Below are positions 3,600-47,869 of a DNA stretch of 64,000 bases, in pieces. The notes below the pieces were generated by a model. That model did not search any database, was not told the DNA's origin, and saw only the letters and a program-made list of their open reading frames with translations. Both the position numbers and the translations under genes were made by a program. Source of the stretch: Tetrapyrgos nigripes (taxonomy: Eukaryota; Basidiomycota; Agaricomycetes; Agaricales; Campanellaceae); assembly GCA_013368315.1 (NCBI GenBank), contig JAACJM010000047.1:124001-188000 (forward strand), read 5' to 3'. Each line of letters starts with the position of its first letter. The stretch's first letter is position 1.

Positions 3600-4095
3600 G
3601 CACGCCCAACTACCCCCACAAAAAGTATCACGGCTTACCCTCACCTATTAAATGCTTCTGAAGACGCCAAGAGGACCTTTTGGACGCAATGAACGGACCA
3701 TAGTCGACAGAAATGTCACGGATACGTCGCAAATTGATGCGTTAAGAGTTCACTTCACAAACCCAAAATTCACGAAGTGGTTGAAGACGAAGCTCTTGCA
3801 AAAAGTTGCTGCAGACCTAGGGATACAGGCGACCGACGCGACCATCGAGCTATATAAGCTTTTGTTGTATAGGGAGGGATTACAGTGAATTCTTCACGAT
3901 ATTCTTCCCAAACGAGTATTTACTTAAATGTTTCACTGTTTCAAAGCGCATCAAGACACCCAAAAATGCGAAGGCATGATTGGATCCATAATCATCATCC
4001 TTCCATCCTGGTACACTGGTGGTGAACTGGTCCTCAGCCACGGAAAAGCTTCGAAAACACACGACTTCTCTACCCTGTCTTTTTCCACTGTCGGC
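3600..4095 (+). pseudogene. Copy A: N-terminal fragment of the 2OG-dioxygenase/helical family, frameshifted
   Basis: A relic of the gene family seen five more times in this window. The first part reads in one frame (…LLNASEDAKR) and the continuation (GPFGRNERTIVDRNV…) in another, so a frameshift lies near 3672. It aligns with copy C through the region before the catalytic domain (HFTNPKFTKWLKTKLLQKV and ELYKLLLYREG). An intron at about 3888-3940 is kept at the family position. It is followed by the iron-binding HxD segment AHQDTQK and by the sheet WYTGGELVLSHG. Similarity stops at about 4090, before the distal His and the Arg of the domain. No C-terminal half follows on this side of the DUF6535 gene. 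It is almost certainly nonfunctional. Confidence 0.75.
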
Positions 4096-10340: not shown

Positions 10341-11439
10341 TATCCTTCCAAAAATCCCCAAAGACTCGGAACCTGCCAGAGCACACTTCTTTTCGTTGCT
10401 GCAAGAGTTGTGGAACCTGAAAGAAAGTCAAGCAACTGACGTTCAGTTGTCGGTGTATGTTCTGCTCATTGAGAACGTAATGGAAATCACTCTGAAAATG
10501 AAATGTAACCCGGAACATATACCCCTTATCCTCAAGGTTATACAAGCCAACGGAACGTCTTGGTTCAATGACAAGTACGTTTTTGATCCTGCATCTTGTC
10601 TATTTTTTTCTGGTTCTTACTCGACCCAGACTCTCAGCATCTGGAAATCTGAAATCATGTACACCTTCTGGCTAGAGTTCACCAAGTCTCTATGGGATCA
10701 TCAGCTCGGAACACCCTCTATGCAAACATCCAAAGTGCTCATAGTCCGATGCTGGGAAGTCCTTGTCGGTTTGTAGGAAGTCCAAGTTGCGGCTCCACCT
10801 TCAAGGACGTTCTGGCGTTACGGCTACAGCTCGTATGGCCAGCCCGCGAGAAAGCCAAGCGTTGACCGTATCATCGACATCGTCGAGCTTTGCGTTCGGA
10901 CCAGGCGTCCCAAACCCTGCTCTCCCCTTTCCGTGGCTATCCTGAAGGAACGCGCCCCGACCAAAGTAAACTTTACGTCTTTCTACGAAGTTCTGATATC
11001 CCTTACGGTTCAGACTAAGGACCTCGACGTGTGTACTCCACCCTTTAACCAGGTCATGGAGGTTCTCATCGGCGCTTATCTCCAGAACGTCGTCGGTCCC
11101 AAATCAGCAACTATCGCAAGTCTTCGTACGCGGAACATCGAATGTGGTTGTGCGAACTGTGCCGATGTGAACAGGTTCCTCCAGAGTCCTTCAACAGAAC
11201 TTCGGGTGAACAAACAACCGAGATTCAACTTGTTGCATGTCTGCGGGTACCTAAACACTGCCACGGATTTGGTGACCTATACTGTTGGGAATTATAGCCG
11301 ACCGACACCAGTCACGGTGAGGAAGACACCGATCCTATTGGCGTATGTACAGTGGGCTCAGAGACAGACGAAGGCGCAAGCGTTTTTGACGACTGTTGGG
11401 ACTGATGACGTCATCGCGAAGGTGGTTGGCAGAACCTGA
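10341..11439 (+). pseudogene. Copy B: C-terminal fragment of the 2OG-dioxygenase/helical family, amber stop
   Basis: Only the C-terminal third of the family is present. The first exon (ILPKIPKDSEPARAHFFSL) aligns with the helical region of C-F, down to LILKVIQANGTSWFNDK. After an intron at about 10575-10630 it continues MYTFWLEFTKSLWDHQLG and CWEVLVGL. There a TAG at 10774-10776 replaces the Trp found in copies C, E and F. The same frame then stays open to 11439 with VDRIIDIVELCVRTRRPKPC, VVGPKSATIASLRTRNIE and the family motif C-G-C-A-N-C. No catalytic domain is found upstream. It is a decayed copy, possibly the missing half of fragment A. Confidence 0.75.
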
Positions 11440-17761: not shown

Positions 17762-20700
17762 TCAATCAGACGTCAGATCAATGACACCATGGTCTACCAT
17801 AGGTGCTCTTCGTTTCTTCCCAGCAACAGGTTGGGAGTACTAGGCCCAGCGTGCGCAACTTGCACTGGTACCCCTGACGGTTTGACACCTTCCCCAAGTG
17901 CATTCACCAGCTCCTCATACTTGTTCGGCATCAAAGTCCTCAATACTTCCTCACTCCCAATCCGAGTCACAAACCCAACTGCTCTTTCCTGCTTCCTCTT
18001 CCACTCTCCCGCAGCCGTAACAACCGGTGATGTTGTAATATCCATCGGCGCCATACTAAACGATGCCACCCTATAAGAAACCAAGTCTTTTGCCTGATCC
18101 AAAACCTTGCAGAGATGCTCTCTCTGTTTCTTGTACAGCCTACCCAAGCTCAAGGAGGCGCTGTACGGTTGAGAACCAGACCCGCTCGTGTAGCCCGTCC
18201 CCGTAGTCCCTTTCAGCCACTTGTTCACTTCGGAACAATGCGAACATCCACACCCAATCGTCCGCATACGGATATTATCAATCCCCGCAGGCTTAGATCC
18301 AAGAACATGTCGGAGGTACTCGGTAATCATCACTTCGTAGAACTGGTTGAAGGGTTTCTCGAATATGTTCAATCCTTCCACGTTTGCAATCCTCGGATAA
18401 TCTTCTCGTAGACAGTCTCGAAGGTATCCGGACTAGGTCGACGTTTTGACAGGAGATCCATGAAGAGTGGTGTACACAGATCGGGATGTTTTGCACGGAC
18501 ACATAAATGGACGATTTGGACTATTTGGTCTGAGACGTTTGCTTCTTCACCAACATGTCTCCCTTGGGCATTCCATAGACCAATTAGGATTTCCAGGCAT
18601 TGAAGCAATGGTGATTTTTGGGGAGGATCCACCGTGGTGTCCATTGCTGGAGACGAAGCATCGAGAGACCGAGTTTCTGAATATATTCCAAGGCCATTAT
18701 CCAGCAAAGCCTCGACGAGTCTACTCCAAAACTTGTACACTGAATGACGCGGGTCCTTGACGAAGTTCGGAAGAATCCTGTCAGCCACTACGTCAGAACC
18801 TTGTCGACAGCTTTTGAACCAAGAAACTTACTGCTGCATAAACCATTCCATGCCACGCTCCCTAATCACTCTCAAGAGTATAGGAACGTCACGATCGTAC
18901 GCTTCCTTATACCTCAAGAGATTCTCCTGGAACATCCTTTTGCACCATTCTTGCACTACAGGCGCTTCCTCCTTGGAATTTTCCTTATCACAAGCGTGCT
19001 TTTCGAGATTATCCAGTAGCGCATCCACTGAAACCAAGTCCTCCAGTCTTGGTAGCTCATTTTCAAGCCTTCATTATGCAATTAGCTCAAACGTTCAAAG
19101 TAAGGATCGACTCCACTTACAAAGTGCTCATAACATCCCATCCAAACACCTTCCATATCTCAAAGAGTGTCTCATGGAACATTGAATCGCCGATGTCCAT
19201 CCGTTTAAAGATGGCTCCCAAATAACTGACGTCCTTCCAAAGACACGCAAAATGCACCAAAGTATCCTCTTTTTCACAATCCAGCGAAGGAATGTGATTC
19301 AATGCCCCGTAAGCCAACGTGCGATCTGTCGGCGTGGGCTCGGAGGATTCTGCAGAAGACGATTCTCGCAAACGACGGAGACACCGTTCTCCCTTGTATG
19401 GGCGGGCAAAGTTGGGTTCGTCTCCATTTATAATGACCAGTGCTGTTGCATAGTAATCTAGATTATGAAAATCAGGAATACAGACCAAGACCAAGAGATC
19501 AAGTAGCAAACGTACATTGGTCAAGTTGTCCGCCTTCCTGTTCATCAATTATGCCGGATCAGTACAAGAATATCCTTTGCTTCAAAGAAAAGACACATAC
19601 ATTACCCATATACCCCTCATACTCCTTATCATCTGGCTCTTTATCCTCAAAATAATCATCCGGTACCAACGCTCCCTTCTCAATTGTCACCGAACCAAGA
19701 TCACCACCATCCAAATCATAAAAACGCCTTCACATTCAACTCGCTTTCATACACTTCCAGCATCCCCACTTCCTCATCATCATCATCATCATCATCCTCT
19801 GAGTCAAACGCATATCGACCACGCTTATTCCAACCATACCCAGCATCATCAGGGGCACCAGATTCATGTAGATCCAAATTCCCCAAAGCTAGTACGAAAC
19901 CAGTATCTTCGGCTACTTCTCGGACGTGTGCGAGGAGTTGGGCATCTTGACCTTTAAGCCCTTTGACGCCTTCACGGAGCTCAGATTCACTATATTGGTG
20001 ATCCAAAATATAGGCAGCAGTATCCCAGAGCCTGTGTTGATTTTCTTTCCAATCGTTCAAAACCTTGCGAAAGGCTTCGATGCCTCGTGTAAGGTCGGGT
20101 AATCTGGGAAGAGGGACAGAAGGGTTGGACGAACGAACGAGATTGAAAGAGAGGGCAAGTCGGTATCCGGAGGTGACGGGTTTGACTTCGTGGAAGACGT
20201 CCGTGTACCATGCCATTGCGACACATGAGAAGAGGGAGTCGTTGGAAAAGTCGAATATTTTTGAGGTATCGGAATGGGTGAGAATCAGTTCGCCTCCGGT
20301 GTATTCAGAAGGAAGTAGGATGATTAGGCTTCCGTACATCCCCGCTTGCTTCTGCGTATCTTGGTGTTTAGCGAAACTGTCAAGGATGTTAGCAAAAGGA
20401 ACCTCAATCCATAAGGATTGCCCCTACTGAGAACCAGTCTTGTATAATAAGAGCTTATACAACTCTACACTCGTCGTAACTTGAGCTTCCGTACCAAGCT
20501 CTGTCGTCACTTTTCGTAACACTTGTTCCTTTAACCATGTCTCAAATTGCGGGTTCTTGAAATGAACTTTCGACGCGTCAATCTCGAATGTATCGCGAAC
20601 CTTCGTGTCGACGACTGTTTCTTGATTATGTCCAAAGGGTGCTTGTCGAGAATTCTCGGAATCCATGATGAGTTGAGCATCTCTATCAGTTAATGGGAGT

Positions 20701-21118
20701 CCAATTCGACCAATACCGTCGATGGTGAGAACGGGGTTTGGCGCGTTTGGATAGGCATCCCCAGAGGCGAAGCTACCTTTGAACTGGAAATCGTCATTTT
20801 AAAGCGTGATGGAGGTCGTTCTGACATTGACGGAGACCTTGCGTGAGCTGGATGTGGAAGAGACGCGAACGCGAACATATACGTGACAATGGACTGACCT
20901 TGAAATCTTCCACCATAGCCTCATCAGCATCCAGTGCAGCATCTTCTGTCGTATGACCTTCTTCAGGAGCTTTCGGGATGGTGGAGGCTCCGAGCATAGT
21001 AGGAATGCGACGTAGAGGAGCCAAACCTAGTGTTGTTTTAGTTGTTTGCATTTCGCAAGAGGCACGAGTACTACCAACCTCCAGAGGATTTGCGAGCACT
21101 CTGCTTCGTCCGGGCCAT
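17762..21118 (-). CDS. Copy C: 2OG-Fe(II) dioxygenase with histone H3-tail-like N-terminus; two frameshifts near 3' end
   Basis: The only family member here with a complete active site. Exon 1 (ATG 21118) encodes MARTKQSARKSSGG and joins LAPLRRIPTMLGAS. An acidic stretch follows, then NPVLTIDGIGRIGLPLTD. The prolyl-4-hydroxylase-like domain has FAKHQDTQKQAGM (HxD ligands), PSEYTGGELILTHS, WYTDVFHEVKPV (distal His) and SGYRLALSFNL (2-oxoglutarate Arg). A poly-Asp run (GAT repeat, about 19778-19800) and the helical C-terminal region follow. At about 18385 one base is missing, so the frame ends RGLQTWKD instead of continuing to VEGLNIFEKPFNQF. At about 17834 a second missing base separates GPST from PVAGKKRRAPMVDHGVIDL and the stop at 17762. 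These may be real mutations or consensus errors. Without them the product carries the C-G-C-x2-C motif, a basic tail and a SUMO-interaction-like VIDLT. The substrate is unknown. Confidence 0.75.
21079..21118 (-). other. Histone H3 tail-like first exon of copy C
   Basis: Forty coding bases give MARTKQSARKSSGG. This matches the first 14 residues of histone H3 except Ser for Thr at T6 and T11 (initiator Met not counted). K4, K9 and S10 are kept. The donor is GGAG|GTTGGT, and the acceptor AACACTAG restores the frame into GLAPLRRI, which still resembles H3 GKAPRKQL. Reading through without splicing hits TAG two codons later. Confidence 0.75.
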
Positions 21119-21639
21119 CTTGCTGGAGAAAATGGATGAAAATGAGTGGCACTGGCACGATTTCAAGAGACGCGTCTCACTTTGGTCTCACTTTCCCGCT
21201 GTGACGTCGACGCGTCGAAGAAAATTTATGGTGGCTCCTGACGGATACTCGAGATTCTACGACCATATGCATTGCCAACGCCCCGCAGGGTCAGAGTGTT
21301 CTACTTTTCCTTCGAAGTTCCTTCAGCAGCAGAACGTTGGGCGCTGATTCCTAAATAGGCGCCTAATTTTAGCTTCACCTTGCCAGTAAGACCCTTTTTT
21401 ACATAATGGGCCAAGGTTTGAGGCCAATCCGAACAGGCTCTTAGAACGCCCATGCATTTCGAGACCCTTAGGACGCCGTTAAAAAGGACGCCCATGCAGA
21501 GGCCCGCTGCGCCTTTCTCTTTCCCGTCACTTTCTAGTTCCCTCCAAGTGTCAATTTGCTATTGTGCTGTCTGTTATCTGTGCATCTCAACTCAGGCTAG
21601 TTCCTATCATCACATCCTACTCTACATCTACACTTCATT
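21119..21639. promoter_or_regulatory. Divergent intergenic region of copy C and the Zn2Cys6 gene, with ACGCGT boxes
   Basis: ACGCGT occurs at 21170-21175 and 21210-21215 upstream of copy C. The leader of copy C (about 21131-21150) matches that of copy D. No further gene is seen; short frames here are shadows. Confidence 0.5.
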
Positions 21640-26682: not shown

Positions 26683-29600
26683 TCAGTCCATAGCCTTCCT
26701 TTTCTTCCCAGCTGGCAAGCTAGAAGCGTTTCGTTGACCTTGCACTGGTGCAGATGTTCCAGCACCCGCCAAACCCTCCAGAGCCTTCACCACCACCGTA
26801 TCATAATCATCTCCCATAACCCTAATCACATTAGCATTTCCAATCCGTTCTAAAAAAGCCTTCCCCTTGATGACCTTGTCCCTCCACCGCGATGCCAACT
26901 TGTATTTTGGTTTCTTGACAATGTCCATCTGCCCCACTTTGCCATTTTTACCTCGTCTGCTTTTCGACGCCACTTTGTACGACACCCGATCAGTTGAGTC
27001 ATCCAAATACTTGGATAGATGTTGGATGATTTCGGAATTTTGATGCATGTCGAGAGAGCGGCGGTTAGCGCTTTGATCCTTTAAAAACTCGTCCACCCTG
27101 CTGCATTCCTCACACGAGCCGCATCCAAAAGGTTGTGTTGGGAGATCATGGATACCGGCAGGCTTGGGACCGAGTACTCGCCGCATGTACTCAGTAATGA
27201 CTGTCTTGATGAATTGGCTGAAGGGGTTCATGGCGAAAATGTCGAGCCCTTCCACCTGGTCAAGACGTTTAATGAGGCTCCCGTAGTGGTTCTCTAGCGT
27301 ATACACAAGACGCGTATCTCTCTCGAGCAAATTTTTGAAGAGCTCTGCACATACTTCGGGATGATGTGCACGAACGGAGAGCGTCACGGTCTCGGCTACG
27401 TCTGACGTATTCCAAAGCGAAGTTCTGAATGCTGGACCAGTGTCAATACAGAGTTCTACGAGGATCTTCAGGCTCTTCAACAATGGTGTCGTTGGGGGGA
27501 ATGTAGCAGTTCCTACAGCAGAAGAGTATTCTGTAGGCTCTTTTCCAGCATATTTGTCAAGCAAACCTTTGACAAACTCCTTCCAGAAAGCGTGCAGATC
27601 AAGGGTTGAGCCTTCAATCTCTTTGGGAAGATTGGGAAAAACTCTGCGAAGGGATTCAGTGTCTGACTGACTGTAACGAAGGTTAGAGCACGCACTGTTC
27701 CATAAACCACTTCATGCCATGCTTCTCAATCAACGAGAACATGATTGGGACATCCAGCTTGTTCACTTCTTGGAGCTCTCGAAGGATTGCGTTGAAGACT
27801 TTATCCCTCCACTCTCTAACTATGCCAGCTTCCTGTACGGAAGAAGGGTGTGTCGAAAGGGCTTCCAGAAACTCATACTTTGTGGATAGTCCCTTCATCT
27901 GCCGCAGCCTGGGTTGAATTCTAGAAGAGTTTTAGTACAGCTCTCTCTTTAATGGACGACCGGGATACCTTTCACTGAAAATCTCCCAACCAAAAACATC
28001 CCATACTTCAAAATAGCGCGAAACCTCGCCGAGTTGGAGGTCTACGCCCTTCATCACACCGTCCAAAAGATCATTGTCTTTCCAAAGACATGCACAATGC
28101 ATGAGCTGATAGACTTGTTCTTTCTGAAGACGTGGCAAGGATTTCAAGAGCTCGTGAACAGATTCCTTCTCAGCAGAAGACGGTTCAGATGCGGCAATGG
28201 AGGCTTTCTCGAGACGTTGTATCATCTGGAATGCCCTAAGGCGAGTGCAATATGGCTTGTCTCCGTGGATGATGATGAGAGCAGTAAGATTGTAGGCTTG
28301 ATAGTGCAGAATGTTAGTTACAGAGGTAAAAAGATTCGGTATAACATGACACTCACATTGCTCCCATTGTTCATACGACTGTTTTAAAAATCAGAACCAG
28401 ATCGCAGATAAGGTAGATCACCTACTCACCCTATCCACAACTGCATAACCCTGAAATGTTGGGACATTTTTGTCGAAAAAGTCGTTCTTTAGAATCAGAG
28501 AGCTACATTCCAATTCCATGTGCTCCATTTTGACGCCATCTAAATCATGGAATGCCCAAATCTGTGAGTTGGTCTCAAAGACCTCCGTCATAAGCCTGTA
28601 GCGGTTATCCTCCGTCACGAACCCATAGCAGAGATCATCTCCCGACCAAGAGTCGTCTGAATCGATATTACCTCCCCTATTTAACTCAAACATTGCAATT
28701 CCAAGAAAGAAGCCAAGCCCTTCAGCGACATTACGGACATTTGACACCAAACGGGCATCTTCGTCATCGAGAAATCGTATACCACTACGAAGTTTATCGT
28801 AATTTGAACCATATTGACCACCATTGAGTACGTAGGCGACGGTATCACCAGATTTACTGGCGAGCAGATTGCGGTTGTCTTTCCATTTGGTTAGAACAGC
28901 GCGAAGGCCCTCGTCGCTCGAAACTGCAGAATCCAATCTGGGAATGCCCGATGCAGAGTCGATGGCGTGGAAGAGGTTGAAGCAGAGACAGAGGCGGTAT
29001 CCAGATGTCACTGGTTTGACTTCGTAGCAAACACCAGTGTACCAGCCCGTCACATCGATTACATCGAGGGAGGTTGTGGAAGACTCGTATGTTGTCGTAG
29101 AGTTTGAGTGCGTGAGAACGAGTTCGCCTCCGGTATGTTCACATGGTAGAGATACGAGGACTGTTGCAAACATCCCAGGCGCATTCTCGGTGGTTTGCGT
29201 TGCCTGTAAGCTGCAAAACTATCAGAGTAAGTTGATACTCGTGAAAATGCTATACACACTGCGATCCGTTTCCTTCGAACAACAACAACTTGGAAAGCTG
29301 CATAATCATGTCGCTGGGCTGAAGGCCAAACGCAGCAGCCACCTTTGGATCCAATGTCTTCCTCAACCAGCTGTTGAACTCGGAATTCAGGAAGTGAAGT
29401 TCTGACGCGTCGATTTTGACAGGCCCGTTACTGGTAATAGATGCCTGCTGAGCTTTTTCGATGAGCACTTGTGCTTGTGCTTCGTCTAACGGTAAGCGAA
29501 GACAACCGACGCCGTCGACAGTCAGAGCTGGATCCGGAACTTTTCGAGCATCGGTCACCGGTTTGAGCGAGAAAGTCCAACTACCGTGAAAATCCTTGAC

Positions 29601-29834
29601 ACTTTCAAAGGCGATTTGAAGTGCGTTCTGCGACTACAGGTCAGTACCGTGAATTTGGACGCAGAAGACTTGTGTACTTGGAAACTATTGTCTTCGGTGT
29701 CCATGGTATTACCGCTTTCCACCTCTGTAGGACTACTCGAGCGATTTCGATAACCTATTGGCTTACAAGGCGTGTACCCTATAGCTAGTATGTCAGAATC
29801 CAGCCATCATTGAGATTCTGCACTCACCTCCCAT
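26683..29834 (-). CDS. Copy D: 2OG-dioxygenase-family protein without iron ligands
   Basis: Apparently intact multi-exon gene. Exon 1 is only ATGGGAG at 29834, followed by GYTPCKPIGYRNRSSS. The family N-terminal block PALTVDGVGCLRLPLDE is present. In the catalytic domain, the segment that reads HQDTQKQAGM in copy C is here TQTTENAPGM, and the distal His is Tyr (TGVCYEVKPV). The Arg (SGYRLCLCFNL) remains. Iron binding is therefore unlikely, and the protein looks like a pseudoenzyme. The C-terminal region carries HCACLWKD, KHGMKWFMEQ, LGPKPAGIHDLPTQPFGCGS and CEECSRVDEFL, ending in the basic tail GKKRKAMD. It is flanked by direct repeats of P450 3'-UTR sequence. Confidence 0.75.
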
Positions 29835-40289: not shown

Positions 40290-43200
40290 ATGGCAGGTCA
40301 GTCTCATTCATCACATTCAAATTACCCTTTGTTGAAGTTTGGACCGTGGTGTTAGACCCCAATGCCAGCGCAAGTACTATGCCACCACCAGAGTTATCCA
40401 CCGGTGCCACTGAACCTGCAGAAACGAGTGACGCCGATATCTCCATGGAAGATAGCGGTCCTGATTTTAGAGCACGTATCATCTCTGAAATGTTACATAG
40501 ATGCTATCTGTTAACATTGTGACGACAGGAGGAACTTCGAGCCGCATTCAACAAGTTCAGGGATTTTCAGTATCATCGCAGCTACAAATTTCGCAACCAC
40601 AAAAAAGCAGCGCCGAAACCCCTTCTCACTGTCGATGGCATTGGTCAAATTGACCTACCCTTGACCGAAGCCCATGCGTGTCTCATAGTCGAGAAGGCCC
40701 AGCAAGTGCGCTCTGGTCAAGATCAGGACCAAGACCAAGAGATGGTCGTCGACGGAGATCATTTCGAGATTGATGGGTCGAATGTGCATTTCATGAACCG
40801 ATCTTTCAAGGATTAGTTGAATGACGAGGTCCTGCAAAGGGTGACCTCTGGACTTGGAACCCAGGCTGGAGATACGACTATTGAGCTTGACAAGTTGCTC
40901 TTGCTCAAAGAAGGATCATCTGGGTATGCATGTTTTGCTGAAATACGAGTTTATTATCTCATATGGACCCACGCATTCTACAGGCACCAAATCGAAGGAT
41001 TAGTGAAGCCTCTTGGACTCTTCGCCGCTGTCATCGTCTTTTTACCCAGCGAATACACTGGGGGCGAGCTGGTGCTTACGCATGAGACTCGATCAAAAGC
41101 GCTGGGCAAGTTCTCGAAGGAGTCTCTCAAATCCGTCGTTGTGGTTGCTCATTTCGCCGATGCGCGTTGCGAGGTCAAGCCATTGTTGTCGGGTTACCAG
41201 CTCGCACTCTCATTCAACCTTATTCGCTCCGTTGACTCTCCCCTGGGCATCCCGAAATCGCCAGACACCGCCTTAGGCGTTGAAAGCGCTCGCGCTGTTC
41301 TAAGCAAGTGGAAGAATGGTCGGAGCGAAATAAAGGGAGCTGGGGATATGATCGCGTATGTCTTTGGTCACCGGTACGGCAAACTTGAATTTTGGAAAGG
41401 CGACAAATGCCTGAAAGATCAAGATGCGCACCTAGTTGCCCACATTCGCAATGTCGCAGAAAACTTTGGGTTCCTTCTCTGTATTGCCAATCTTCACCTA
41501 GATCAAATAGGTACCACAAATCCAGAAGACGAAATGGTATGCGGCTGGAAGCGAATGAGGTATGATTCCGATAGTGAATCGGAATACGGTCACACCCAGC
41601 ACTAACCAATATTCATTGGCCAAAAGTTAGTTCGGAAAGGTCAAGTTTTCGAGGGACCAGGAAACTCATTTGGAAACGAAAGGTTTTCGTGCTTCAGAAA
41701 TTTATCGGAAGCGGATCCGAGCCAATCGGATCGCTTGCCGAGGCTTCGGAAATTTAAAGTTTTCGAATCCGTTTTCGAGCACCAGAGATTTGATGTTTCC
41801 TAATTAACTTCTGGCCACGGAATATTGGTTACTGCTGGGTGTGGGTGTTGATTCAGAAATCGAATATGATTCGGAGGAGCCTGAAGAGATTGACAATCAT
41901 CCTCCCTTACGCATGTTGAAGGTCACTCAGAACAACCTCTCTACACTGGCGATGTTCGACATGGACGGAACTTACATCCAAGGCAGGATGTCCATTGATT
42001 TTGATGCCTTGGTTCCGATGGACTTTTTCAAGAACAGAACACCAGATAGACAGGAATATGGCGAGAGATATAAGGTGGGTGCTAATTTCAAGTCGTGATC
42101 TCCCTTTTCACTGAATGAGAATCAATTAGGGTGACGAGGGACTTGAACAACGTGAGTGATTCCTTTCGCTGACTTTTGTTTCTGGGCTTATAAGATGTAC
42201 ACATGTAGGATACTCTAATATCTCGACTCTGATCATGATACATGCAGATGACCCGAAATACGCTCCAAAATTCAGAGCGGACCAAGCGATACGCCATCTC
42301 GGAATCTCATTCTCCACTTCAGCTTCGTCCAGGCCAACTCCAGGCGAGCAGGAACTGGCTCATACTGCATCGAAGTATTTGCAAGATCTAAGGCCCAAGA
42401 GAAAGAGAGCGCTCACGTTGCTACATTGTGCGTGTCTCTGGAAAGACATCGATCTGTTCGACACGACGATGAAGGTCCTGGAACTCCGACCCACTTCGGA
42501 TATGTCACTGTTATATGAAGTCTGGGATGCTTTTGGATGGGATATCGTCAGTGCTCGGTGAGTTAATCAATCATTTTATGCACTGGAAGTCACTTAGGAG
42601 TATTGCAGAGTTGAAGAGAAGCTTCCGGAAATGACAGAACTGTCCATGTTCGAGACTTTCCTGGAGAAGTTTGTTAAGCACGCCTCTGATCAGGAAACCG
42701 TCCTGGTCAGCAGATGGAGGGAAAGAGTGGTTAAATTGCACATTTCACAGTTCAGGCGGCCCAGAGAGTCAGAGGTTCCCCTGCTCTTGAGAGAAATTGA
42801 GCAGCACGGCATTGGGTGGTTCATGGAAGAGTATGTGTTTCAGGCTACTCTATTCAACGACATGCTGACTCAAAGAATGATAGTGTTTTTCCGAAGCTTA
42901 TCAAAGACTATGGCGGTTCTGTGTATGACTTCTGGAAAAAACTAGTCATGGGTTTATTGGCGAAGAACCTTGGCAACACCACCTCTTCCACCTCATCCGC
43001 AGAGTCTCATTCAGCAACGTCAGCTGGTGCGAAAACGCCATTTGTGCAATGCTTAGAGGTTCTTGTGGATCTATGGGATCCCACTCGTGCAGAGCGGGTA
43101 CACTATCCTTCACTATTCAAATATCAAGAGGACCGAGTCTTCGAGATCGTGGAACTTGCCACGCAGGCAAAACATCTTGAAGTGTGCACCTCACTCTTCA

Positions 43201-43898
43201 CAGATATTCTGGAGAGGCAGGCGCCAACTGCAAAAACTTTGACGGACTTCTACCAAAAGCTTCTTCCTCGTCTCGCCCAGATCAAGGGTTTGAACATGTT
43301 CAGCAAGCCGATTGACCAGTTTACGAACACGGTAGTCTCTGAATACCTGACCCAGGTACTTGGTCCCAAGCCTGCGGAACTGAAAAGGGTTCATTCAAGT
43401 TTTGGATGTCATCACACAGATTGCCAGAAAGTACTGGAGTTTCTGAATGCGACTCGCAAAAGATCTCTCAAAGGCAGATCTCTGAAGTTGAGCCGTAAAC
43501 CGGCCATTGTCCAGCACTTGTGTAAGCACCTGGATGAGCTTGAGCCCTCGGACATGGTTTCGTATGTCGTAGGAAGCGAACGCGCGAAACGAGGAAACCA
43601 GATGATAAACATTACCAAAAACTCGATCCTGTTCACAGCGTTAGATTGGAGGTCTAAAGAGGAGGTAACAAAGATGTTTTTGAGGCAGATTGCCGGGGGC
43701 AGTGACATTGTCAAGACATTTTTGGGTACCAAATGTCTAGGCGCCGTTCTAAAGTTTTTGGATGGTTCAGGGCCGACTTCTATGCTGGAGCAGAGCGTAG
43801 CCGGCCCCAGCAACGTCGCAAACAACTCGCAGCCCAGCATCGGTGGTGGTCTCCCGACGAACCCTGTCGCAGGTTCCAAAAGGAAAACTATGGATTGA
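40290..43898 (+). pseudogene. Copy E: 2OG-dioxygenase-family gene with amber codon and MITE insertion
   Basis: Tandem sister of copy F. A tiny first exon at ATG 40290 leads to MPPPELSTGATEPAET and LLTVDGIGQIDLPLTEAH. At 40814-40816 TAG replaces the Trp codon of copy F (RPFKGWLNDEV). The catalytic domain follows (LFAAVIVFLPSEYTGGELVL) but lacks ligands: GHQIEG for HxD, ADARCEV for the distal His, SGYQLALSFNL for the Arg. At 41591 a 253-bp MITE splits the codons of YG/VDSEIEYDSEE. Beyond it the frame resumes (LRMLKVTQNNLSTLAMFD), with HCACLWKDIDLFDTTM, GPKPAELKRVHSSFGCHH and the tail GSKRKTMD. A conserved-position intron would use a GC donor (TTTAGA|GCACGT). With a nonsense codon and an insertion it is very probably dead. 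Confidence 0.8.
41591..41843. mobile_element. MITE, 253 bp, imperfect long TIRs, 3-bp GGT duplication
   Basis: Begins CACACCCAGCACTAACCAAT and ends with its inverted partner (ATTGGTTACTGCTGGGTGTG). The inverted match extends imperfectly to about 43 bp each side. GGT occurs just before (41588-41590) and just after (41844-41846). There is no coding capacity. Removing the element and one GGT restores the reading frame seen in copy F. The superfamily is uncertain: a 3-bp duplication fits CACTA or PIF/Harbinger, but the tip sequence is typical of neither. Confidence 0.85.
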
Positions 43899-44526: not shown

Positions 44527-47500
44527 ATGACAGGTCAGTCTCATTCATCACATTCAAATTACCCTTTTTTGAAGTTTGGACCGTGGTGTCAGATCCCAAT
44601 GCCAGCGCAAGTATGCCACCACCAGAGTTATCCACCGGTGCCACTGAACCTGCAGAAACGAGTGACGCCGATATCTCCATGGAAGATAGTGGCCCTGACT
44701 TTAGGGCGCGTATTATCTGTCTCTGGATTTTCAGATGCCCCCTGCTAATAATTGACCACAGGATGAACTCCAGACCGCTTTCAGCAATTTCAAGGCTTTC
44801 CAATATCATCGCAGCTACAAATTTGGCGACAGTCGGAAAGCGGCTCCAAATCCACTTATCACTATCGATGGCATCGGTCAGATTGACTTACCCTTGACCG
44901 AAGCTCATGCGCTTCTCATCGTCGAGAAGGTCCAGCAAGTGCGCTCTGGCCAAGGTCAGGACCGAGAGATGATCGTCGACGGATGTCATTTCGAGATTGA
45001 TGGGTCGAATGTCCATTTTATGAATCGACCTTTCAAAGGTTGGCTGAATGATGAGGTCCTGCAAAGGGTAACCTCTGGACTTGGAACCCAAGCGGGTGAT
45101 ACGACTATTGAGCTTGACAAGTTGCTCTTGCTCAAAGAAGGATCATCTGGGTATGCATCTTTTGCTGATATCCAAGTTCATCTCTGATATGACCCACAGC
45201 TTCCACGGGCACCAAACCGAAGGAGCCGCCAAGTGTTCCGGACTTTTCGCCACCGTCATCGTCTTTTTACCCAGCGAATACACCAGGGGCAAGCTCGTAC
45301 TTACGCACGAGACTCGCTCCAAGGCTTTGGACTTTTCAGAGGAGTCTCTCACATCCATCGTAGTGGTGGCTCATTACCAGGATGCAGTCTACGAAGTCGA
45401 ACCACTGTTGTCAGGATATCAGCTCGCACTCTCATTCAACCTTCTCCGTTCCCTCGATTCGTCTTTGGGCATCCCACAATCTCCAAACACCTCCTTGGGC
45501 ATCGAGAGGGCTCGTACTGTTCTGAGCAAGTGGAAAGATGGTCGAAACAAAATCAAGGGAGCCGGGGATATGATCACATACGTTTTTGCTCACAAGTATG
45601 ACGGTCATCGTGGAAAACTGTTCTCTGATGGTGTAAAGTGTCTAAAGGATCAAGACGCTCACCTCGTCGGGCATATCCGCGATATCGCAGAAAATCTTGG
45701 ATTTGTCCTAGGTATCGCGAATCTTAGGCTGGTGCAGGTCGGCACCACGAATCCAAGCGACGAATGGTCATACGAGTGGAAACGTACGAGATATGACTCG
45801 GACAGTGATTCAGAATGGACCCACCCTTATGAGGAGTTTGATGATCATGTTCCGTTACACATGGTGAAAGTCCTTCAGAATGATCTGTCGACCTATGCGT
45901 TGTATGACATGGATGGCACCCATATTCAGGACGACATGTCCATTGATTTTGGTGCATTGGTTCCGCAGGATCATTTCAAGGATAAAACCCCAGACGAACA
46001 ACTTTATTGCGAGGTAGGCACCCGGGTTCCTGGTTTGTAAAAACTCGATACTGAATCCTCGCGCAGGATGCGAAAGATATCCAGCAATGTGAGTCATCGT
46101 CGGATTCATTGAATCTTTTCTATGTCTTAATCACCAGCACCATCTAGTTTACTACGGTGTCACAGCCCTGATTATTATCCACGGCGACGATTCGCACTTC
46201 GCTCAAAAACTCAAAGCAGACCAAGCAATACGCCTTCTCGAGAATTCGGCTACTGCTTTTTCACCTGAACCGACTCCATCCGAACAAGAGTCGGCTCGTG
46301 CGGCGTCAAAGTTTTTGAGCAATCTAAGGCTCAAGAAAGAGCGATCACAGACGCTGCTGCACTTTGCATGTCTGTGGAAAGATCTTGTTCTGCTGGATGC
46401 GACGATGAAGACCTTAGAGCTTCGTCCCACTTCAGACATGTCTCCGTTGTTTGAGGTATGGGATACCTTTGGATGGGACATTACTAGTGTTCGGTGAGTT
46501 ACTTGAATGTTCCAGATTTGCCCGATTATCGAACACCTTGCAGAGTTGAAGAGAAACTGCCAAAGATGCAAGAGCTGGCTATGCTCGAGGTTTTCCTGGA
46601 AAAATTCCTGAAACACGCCTCTGCCCAGGATGTCCAAGCGGCGGGTTCATGGAGGGAAAAGGTTGTTAAATCATATGTTCCGACATTCACCAAGCCCACC
46701 GAATCAGATGTTCCCACCCTCTTAAGGTTGACCGAGCAGTATGGCATTGCATGGTTCATAGAGCGGTGCGTATTTTCACCTGGCCATCGTTAGTTTGGAC
46801 GCTGAAGAAGCCACTTAGTGTTTTCCCAAACCTTTACAAAGACTATGATGACACTTGGTACTGCGCAGTGTTTGGCTTCTGGAAGGAGTTTGTCAAGGGT
46901 TTACTGGACAAAGACCTCGGGAGGACCACTCTTTTATCCGAGAAAACACCCTTGCTGCAGTGTTTGGAAGTCCTTGCACATTTATGGGACCCTACTCGCC
47001 ATAAGAAGGTCATCTTACTTTCGCCTTTGGAAAAACAAGCAGAACGGGTCTTCGAAATTTCAGAACTGGCTGTACGTGCCAAGCATAACGAAGTCTGCGC
47101 ATCGCTCTTCACGGATCTCCTTGAAAAGCAGCCGCCATCTCCAACAACCTTGAAGGGACTTCACCAGAACCTTCTTCATCGTCTTGCCAAAATCGAGGGT
47201 GTGGACTTATTCGACAAGCCTTTTTATCAGCTCACGGAGGCCATCGTTCCTGCGTACCTGACGCATGTACTTGGTCCCAAGCCTGCGGAACTGGTCACTC
47301 GTCCAAATTTTGGGTGCGGTTGCGTGGATTGCAACCATGTAGCCGAGTTCCTGAATGCGCCAGCCGGCTCCTTCAATGGGGGTAAATATGTCCGCAAAGG
47401 GACCTGTTTCAAGCTGAGTCTTAAAAAAAACACTGTGGAACACTTGTGCCAACACTTGGAGCGAGTGAAGGATCTAGTGTCATATGTTGCAGGCGCCCAC

Positions 47501-47869
47501 GTTTCCAAGCGAGGAAAGCGCACATTGGAGATTACCAAAAACTCAAAGCTGATGGCACGAGCGGAGTGGAGGACAAAACAGGAGGCAGTCAAAGTGTTCT
47601 TGAATCAAATCGTCGATGATGAGGACATAGTCAGGAAATTTTCGGGTACGAAATTTATAGGCGATATTGTAAAGGCTTTGGAAGGATCAGAGGAAGTGGC
47701 AGCGACGTCTACGCCGGTACAGAGGGTAGCTGGTCCCAGCAACGTTGTGAACAATTTGCAAACCAACATTGCTACAGGCCATGGGTCATTGCCGACGAAA
47801 CCGTTCGTTACAGGCCATGGATTGCCGACGAAACCCGTCGCTGGCTCCAAAAGGAAGACTAGGGGTTGA
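44527..47869 (+). CDS. Copy F: 2OG-dioxygenase-family pseudoenzyme, reading frame apparently intact
   Basis: The best-preserved reading frame of the family here. A tiny exon at ATG 44527 joins VWTVVSDPNASASMPPPE. The N-terminal block LITIDGIGQIDLPLTEAH and NRPFKGWLNDEVLQRVTSGL precede the dioxygenase fold (LFATVIVFLPSEYTRGKLVL). Its ligand sites are changed: HGHQTEGAAKCSG for the HxD region, YQDAVYEVEPL (Tyr for distal His), SGYQLALSFNL (Gln for Arg). Then come ALYDMDGTHIQDDMSIDFGA, LLHFACLWKDLVLLDATM, YGIAWFIERC, GFWKEFVKGLLDKDLG and GPKPAELVTRPNFGCGCVDC (motif C-G-C-x2-C). Near the end a short repeat (TGHGSLPTKPF / TGHGLPTKPV) precedes the tail AGSKRKTRG. It would have no iron-dependent activity; a binding or scaffold role is inference. 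As in E, one intron appears to use a GC donor (TTTAGG|GCGCGT). Confidence 0.75.

What the first reader, a model, noticed from the sequence alone, without database searches (positions are those of the whole stretch)
21079..21118. Histone H3 N-terminal tail mimic on a 2OG-dioxygenase-family protein
The first exon of copy C encodes MARTKQSARKSSGG, equal to the histone H3 tail except for T6S and T11S. Even after the splice the next residues (LAPLRR) echo H3 (KAPRKQ). K4, K9, R2, R8 and S10, the sites written and read by H3 modifiers, are all kept. A match of this length by chance is very unlikely. The sister gene D has the same leader and the same GGAG|GT exon end but lacks the peptide, so it was gained in C or lost in D. 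A diffusible protein with an H3 tail could titrate or recruit H3K4/K9 methyltransferases, demethylases or readers. I know of no described fungal system of this kind.
Basis: partly seen in the sequence, partly recalled or inferred. Interest (0 to 1): 0.92.

Follow-up and report, generated by a model that had tools for sequence, protein, structure and literature searches.

The report
Histone H3 exon on fungal hydroxylase
In the mushroom Tetrapyrgos nigripes a gene of a 2OG-dioxygenase family begins with a near-copy of the first exon of histone H3, most likely copied from the fungus's own H3 gene, so that its product would carry a histone tail; this copy of the enzyme gene is frame-broken, but a predicted Trametes versicolor protein of the same family also begins with an H3 tail, so histone-tailed enzymes may exist in such fungi.

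Summary
Observation confirmed. On the minus strand, 21118-21079 encodes MARTKQSARKSSG(G), ending at GGAG|GTTGGT. It is homologous to exon 1 of the host's histone H3 genes: 33-34 of 40 bases, same intron position and phase, same donor as the C181 copies. The similarity is confined to about ATG to 6-12 bases into the intron, while the leader belongs to sister gene D. So this is H3 exon 1, most likely captured by a 2OG-dioxygenase paralogue (predicted prolyl-hydroxylase-like fold), not convergence; A, B, D and the nearest orthologue lack it.

No transcript evidence was available.

In favour: Trametes versicolor TRAVEDRAFT_68036, same family, a 679-aa predicted protein with its iron ligands, starts MARTKQTARKS (1 of 238 listed relatives). 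A second Tetrapyrgos locus holds two small tail-only H3-like genes; the first shows one amino-acid change among seven unique base changes in its tail. Most likely role (inferred): an H3-like docking or decoy peptide on a nuclear hydroxylase. Histone mimicry is known; I found no report of an H3 exon on this enzyme family.

The parts
21079..21118 (-). Exon 1 of gene C: ATG...GGAG, encodes MARTKQSARKSSG(G), homologous to histone H3 exon 1
   Evidence: 33-34 of 40 bases identical to six host H3 exon 1 copies; same phase-1 intron position
21027..21078 (-). Intron 1 of gene C (52 nt, predicted); first bases GTTGGT shared with H3 copies of contig C181
20899..21026 (-). Exon 2 of gene C, LAPLRRIPTM...EAMVEDFK, partly acidic linker
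   Evidence: in-frame translation
21119..21230 (-). Leader/promoter of gene C: part near the ATG aligns to the D leader, not significantly to H3; two ACGCGT (MCB-like) sites at -97 and -57 from the ATG
17762..21118 (-). Gene C, whole: PF13640 2OG-dioxygenase paralogue with HQD...H...R kept; frame broken near 20800, 19731-19720, about 18396 and between 17878 and 17836
26683..29834 (-). Sister gene D, open, 930 aa (D9758_004798), 7-nt first exon ATGGGAG, iron ligands not kept
   Evidence: own splice model equals the database protein; ligands by reading
40290..43898 (+). Paralogue A (D9758_004801), first exon ATGGCAG; in-frame stop near 40815 and an insertion about 41591-41845
   Evidence: stop and insertion by reading
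44527..47869 (+). Paralogue B, first exon ATGACAG by analogy with A
3670..4092 (+). Fragment of a further paralogue
10657..11415 (+). Fragment (C-terminal part) of a further paralogue

Best explanation
The first exon of gene C is homologous to exon 1 of the fungus's own histone H3 genes and was most likely captured from one of them, between the start codon and the splice donor of a 2OG-dioxygenase paralogue, where it would give the encoded enzyme a flexible histone H3 tail. Shown: the homology and its confinement to exon 1, the shared intron position and phase, the D-like leader, the frame breaks in C, and a listed Trametes versicolor family protein with MARTKQTARKS at its start. Inferred: microhomology-guided template switching (ATGGC and GGAGGT are common to both sides) placed the piece; after removal of the first methionine the tail would be read by proteins that recognise H3 K4 and K9 (writers, PHD fingers, HP1), so it would work as a docking or decoy peptide for a nuclear, predicted prolyl-hydroxylase-like enzyme (C-terminal KKRK-type signal and VIDLT motif, roles recalled). 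In Tetrapyrgos this copy appears to be decaying and is likely not making the full enzyme.
For: H3 exon 1 identity 33-34/40 to six copies and identical donor GGAG|GTTGGT in the C181 copies; homology confined: leader alone and post-exon stretch alone against H3 not above shuffles (21-135 and 71-238 of 300), whole stretch above all 300 (five of the six H3 copies used); leader homologous to D, score 47 with shuffle maximum 29; paralogue first exons ATGGCAG, ATGACAG, ATGGGAG; frame breaks; iron site kept and PF13640; TRAVEDRAFT_68036 with 10 of 13 tail residues against at most 4 in the other 215 M-starting listed hits; tail modelled with low confidence as for disorder, and core closest to prolyl hydroxylases such as 4j25, 4iw3 and PHD2; the only two amino-acid changes in C are Thr to Ser, chance about 0.013-0.016 for so few and so conservative changes (criterion chosen after seeing them); ACGCGT upstream of 6 of 6 H3 genes and of C.
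Against: No transcript or protein data. C is frame-broken, so selection for function today is doubtful; the bare count of amino-acid changes does not show constraint (P 0.34-0.38). Nearest orthologue P0003 lacks the tail. With the C64 H3 copy the best local alignment runs on, with gaps, through about 30 bases of leader and 12 of the intron, so the ends of the captured piece are not proved. The Trametes protein is a database gene model whose DNA I could not see; a mis-joined exon from a neighbouring H3 gene is not excluded; the query itself carried the tail (though its alignment to that protein starts at residue 49). ACGCGT is twice as common in the window as expected (16 against 7.9) and paralogue A has three upstream of its start. 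No binding partner was tested.
Confidence: 0.6

Rival explanations
1. Neutral genome accident: H3 exon 1 was copied into an already failing dioxygenase copy; the tail has no role and gene C is a plain pseudogene.
For: Four frame breaks in C against open D and orthologue; paralogue A also carries a stop and an insertion; nearest orthologue lacks the tail; amino-acid change count in the tail compatible with neutrality (P 0.34-0.38).
Against: Both amino-acid changes in the tail are Thr to Ser; exon 1 stays open and keeps its donor; another member of the same family carries the tail in Trametes; a second, separate H3-tail locus in this genome shows signs of constraint.
Confidence: 0.35
2. The 5' part of C is still a gene: it makes a short H3-tail protein (64 aa with the D-like splice acceptor) or a 394-aa H3-tailed dioxygenase (with the downstream acceptor TTTCCAG), as a decoy like the small tail-only proteins on contig C95.
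For: Both products are open reading frames after plausible splicing; the C95 pair of predicted 75 and 94 aa proteins suggests that tail-only H3 derivatives exist in this genome.
Against: No protein for C of 217-690 aa or about 512-1627 aa among listed hits; the 115-nt intron needed for the longer product is unlike the 48-60 nt introns of D.
Confidence: 0.2
3. Chance or convergent resemblance to H3.
For: None found beyond the shortness of the peptide.
Against: 8 genome places and 0 control places for the pattern; base-level identity and shared splice junction.
Confidence: 0.01
4. Sequencing error created the frame breaks and gene C is intact.
For: Two of the four breaks lie in or beside short A or T runs (by reading).
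Against: D is open over 930 codons and equals its database record; the other two breaks are not in long homopolymers.
Confidence: 0.12

Closest known systems
Histone mimics such as G9a/EHMT2 and its non-histone targets (ARK[S/T] motifs)
   Same: Short H3-like peptides outside histones that are written and read like H3K9 (PMC10611923, passages seen).
   Different: Those are short motifs within proteins (that they are convergent is my recollection); here an H3 exon with N-terminal Ala1, K4 and K9 together, homologous to H3 at DNA level.
EZHIP (K27M-like peptide)
   Same: A non-histone protein that acts through an H3-like peptide (PMC6513997, passages seen).
   Different: Mimics H3 around K27, inhibits PRC2, C-terminal position, in human tumours.
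Influenza NS1 H3-like C-terminus
   Same: Mimic of the H3 N-terminal tail around K4 (PMC12937675, passages seen).
   Different: Viral and C-terminal; not described there as a captured host exon.
Swi6/HP1 auto-inhibiting H3 mimic in fission yeast
   Same: H3 mimic in a fungus (PMC7192584 citing Canzio 2013, passages seen).
   Different: Part of a heterochromatin protein; no exon capture or dioxygenase mentioned in the passages seen.
PHD2/EGLN-type and bacterial PHD-like prolyl hydroxylases, OGFOD1
   Different: Titles listed mention no histone tail; sequence identity about 9-17%.

Membership tests
Histone H3 | N-terminal tail ARTKQTARKSTGG | tested here: met
   12 of 14 residues identical counting Met and the split Gly
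Histone H3 | H3 exon 1 boundary, phase 1 in the second Gly codon, as in this genome | tested here: met
   same as in six host H3 genes
Histone H3 | Histone fold (alphaN to alpha3) | tested here: not met
   downstream exons belong to a PF13640 family; C47 is not among the 30 H3 matches listed (best candidates only)
2OG-Fe(II) oxygenase PF13640 | Pfam profile above the gathering score | tested here: met
   C 27.1 bits against 27; P0147 29.1, P0003 37.4; D no match
2OG-Fe(II) oxygenase PF13640 | HxD...H...R ligands | tested here: met
   C has HQD...H...R by reading; in the 56-sequence alignment H257 and R267 of P0147 are invariant and H199 at 90% or more, D201 is not in the 90% list; roles recalled
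Prolyl hydroxylase (PHD-like) | Double-stranded beta-helix fold closest to prolyl hydroxylases | tested here: met
Prolyl hydroxylase (PHD-like) | Hydroxylates proline of a protein | not testable with these tools
   needs enzymology
Histone mimic | H3-like peptide is bound or modified by H3 enzymes or readers | not testable with these tools
   needs binding or methylation assays
Expressed intact gene | One open frame through the family's conserved exons | tested here: not met
   four frame breaks in C

The most novel reading that the evidence does not exclude
A family of nuclear, prolyl-hydroxylase-like 2OG oxygenases in mushrooms has acquired the histone H3 tail more than once by exon capture, making H3-tailed enzymes that compete for, or are steered and modified by, the H3K4 and H3K9 machinery; the same fungus also keeps tail-only H3 paralogues that act as free decoys.
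Probability: 0.27. Interest if true: 0.9.

Novelty: new variant of a known kind. Interest (0 to 1): 0.72.

Why it matters
Histone mimics are usually short motifs. Here the mimic is the histone exon itself, carried over with its splice donor, which points to a simple route by which a protein could gain one of the most heavily regulated peptides in the nucleus. The Trametes relative gives an uninterrupted predicted gene in which the idea can be tested at once, and the tail-only pair on contig C95 gives a second test: whether cells tolerate, or use, free H3 tails. It also warns that anti-H3 tail antibodies and tail-based searches in such fungi may see non-histone proteins.

Tried and rejected
Protein search with the 75-aa C95 protein: 3 candidates, none at E up to 10. 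No DNA homologue of the C 5' region or of the first C95 gene elsewhere in the genome at that tool's sensitivity. Looser tail patterns ARK[S/T][S/T]GG and PRK[S/T][S/T]GG: 35 places (control 5) and 8 places (control 17). Of the 35, the 30 with fetched flanks were read; apart from H3 and H3-like pseudogenes, CenH3, gene C and C95 I saw no ATG-led H3-like start. Of the 8 only the C95 neighbour had one. A larger captured piece including intron 1 and exon 2 was tested and not supported. PDB sequence searches: no relevant match. Literature: searches (listings; long lists were cut) showed no paper on an H3 tail on a fungal dioxygenase; 'histone mimic' with 'Agaricomycetes' gave 0 papers; this speaks only for those terms in an open-licence library. 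A recalled report that a mammalian EGLN hydroxylates H3 P16 could not be read (not held) and carries no weight here. The Trametes gene could not be checked at DNA level: no tool here gave me its genome. The helical C-terminal half of the model was not searched by itself. One search translated the wrong strand (P0001) and was discarded.

Full report
What is there. The window is contig C47:124001-188000 of a 98.46 Mb assembly. Sister gene D, in my own splice model, is 100% identical over 930 aa to database protein D9758_004798 of Tetrapyrgos nigripes, a mushroom of Campanellaceae, Agaricales. The finding lies on the minus strand: ATG at 21118, exon end at 21079, MARTKQSARKSSG plus one base of a Gly codon, intron 21078-21027, exon 2 from 21026, in frame.

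It is H3 exon 1, not a look-alike. A degenerate pattern for MARTKQ[S/T]ARK[S/T] has 8 places in the genome and 0 for the reversed control. Six are canonical H3 loci (C4, C64 twice, C181 three times; one search shows later exons at each; one C181 copy is interrupted in exon 2, by reading). All six have their first intron at GGAG|GT in the same codon and phase as gene C, and the three C181 copies share the donor GTTGGT. Exon 1 of C is 33-34 of 40 bases identical to them. Local alignments with five of the six copies beat all 300 shuffles over the whole stretch, but the leader alone (21-135 of 300 shuffles as good) and the stretch after exon 1 alone (71-238 of 300) do not. In four of the five the best alignment starts at the ATG and ends 6-9 bases into the intron; with the C64 copy it runs on, with gaps, through about 30 bases of leader and 12 of the intron, which tells slightly against sharp ends. 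The leader of C aligns to the leader of D (score 47, shuffle maximum 29), not above shuffles to A or B (35 and 67 of 300). Paralogues A, B and D have tiny first exons, ATGGCAG, ATGACAG and ATGGGAG, also ending in phase 1 (D and A agree with database proteins P0002 and P0004; B by analogy). ATGGC and GGAGGT occur on both sides, which would suit microhomology-guided template switching (inference).

Gained in C. D, A and B lack the tail, and so does the nearest listed orthologue of C, Stygiomarasmius scandens VKT23_001844 (P0003), 60% identical over the dioxygenase part, whose start is MSAGMHMAEQPTGG.

The gene behind it is broken. Against D, B and P0003 the frame of C changes inside conserved exons at the start of exon 3 (near 20800), at 19731-19720, at about 18396 and between 17878 and 17836 (the first by reading together). 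With the D-like acceptor for intron 2 the product is 64 aa; with a downstream acceptor it is 394 aa and still contains HQD...H...R. No T. nigripes protein for C is among the listed hits (candidates about 512-1627 aa, only the 7993 sharing most words scored; 217-690 aa); a self match would have headed the list. D is open but lacks the iron ligands (by reading) and the Pfam match. The assembly may hold alleles: PMC7368018 reports removing potential alleles for this species (passage seen); the 5' region of C nevertheless has one copy.

A second fungus. Searches list 238 different family proteins (best 120 of 216 and of 246; many are bacterial, metagenomic or partial, and I did not count the fungal ones). 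One has an H3 tail: P0147, Trametes versicolor TRAVEDRAFT_68036, 679 aa, MARTKQTARKSLHVSV..., 39% identical to C over 355 aa, with HVD...H...R and a C-terminal KRRK...VIDLT. Among the 216 hits that start with Met it matches 10 of 13 tail residues; the next best match 4. The query carried the tail, so the search was not blind to it, but the alignment to P0147 begins at residue 49. Its tail ends at S10, not at the H3 exon end, and its closest listed relative, Trametes sanguinea P0006 (56% identical over 568 aa), lacks it, so it would be a separate gain. The caveat is serious: it is a gene model seen only as protein. If about two non-histone genes per genome carry the tail (as one search suggests) and a genome has about 20,000 genes (assumed), about 0.02 such cases would be expected among 216 proteins; this is a rough figure made after seeing the case.

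Tail-only relatives. On contig C95 two neighbouring genes encode MARTKQSARKSTGGRAPRRALAS... (75 aa) and MARKKGEPRKSTGGVSRC... (94 aa). By my reading of the sequence both have a phase-1 and then a phase-0 intron, the order found in H3. They are most alike in the first 14 residues (10 of 14; 32% overall). In the first gene the tail differs at 7 sites from all H3 exon 1 forms compared (three distinct forms cover the six copies), with one amino-acid change, T6S (chance 0.0017-0.0026 without selection); part of that constraint may date from a time as true H3.

Constraint in C. Four unique base changes, two of them amino-acid changes, both Thr to Ser. The number alone is compatible with neutrality (0.34-0.38); number and kind together have chance 0.013-0.016. 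The kind was chosen after seeing it.

Promoter. ACGCGT lies 111-143 bases upstream of the ATG in 6 of 6 H3 genes and at -97 and -57 in C; but the window has 16 against 7.9 expected and paralogue A has three about 200-290 bases upstream of its start. A paper on Aspergillus histone promoters reports lower-scoring MBF motifs (PMC6900853, passages seen). Whether C is made in S phase is open.

Verdict.

Noticed in passing
L039 (G000:C95:208500-213500), minus strand, 3962-3551 and 2814-2415: Two neighbouring small predicted genes with H3-like tails but no histone fold (75 and 94 aa); the first was not found among database proteins of 41-131 aa.
   Followed up: partly
P0147 (Trametes versicolor TRAVEDRAFT_68036): Member of the same dioxygenase family starting MARTKQTARKS, uninterrupted as listed and with iron ligands.
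   Followed up: partly
L027 (G000:C181, H3 copy with ATG at 46213) and window about 41591-41845: A same-looking short element starting CACACCCAGCACTAACCAATATTCATTGG interrupts exon 2 of one H3 copy and an exon of paralogue A; likely a MITE (by eye).
   Followed up: no
L049 (C92) and L050 (C126): Two genes that look like CenH3, with long tails containing ARKSTGGKPPR; in C92 the tail block is present twice.
   Followed up: no
L046 (C137) and L047 (C252): H3 copies whose QTARKSTGG stretch lacks an in-frame MARTK start: H3 pseudogenes or mis-sequenced copies.
   Followed up: no
window 3670-4092 and 10657-11415: Truncated further copies of the dioxygenase family; with A, B, C and D the window holds a partly decaying array.
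   Followed up: partly
window 21170 and 21210: Two ACGCGT boxes in the promoter of C, as in all six H3 promoters examined.
   Followed up: partly
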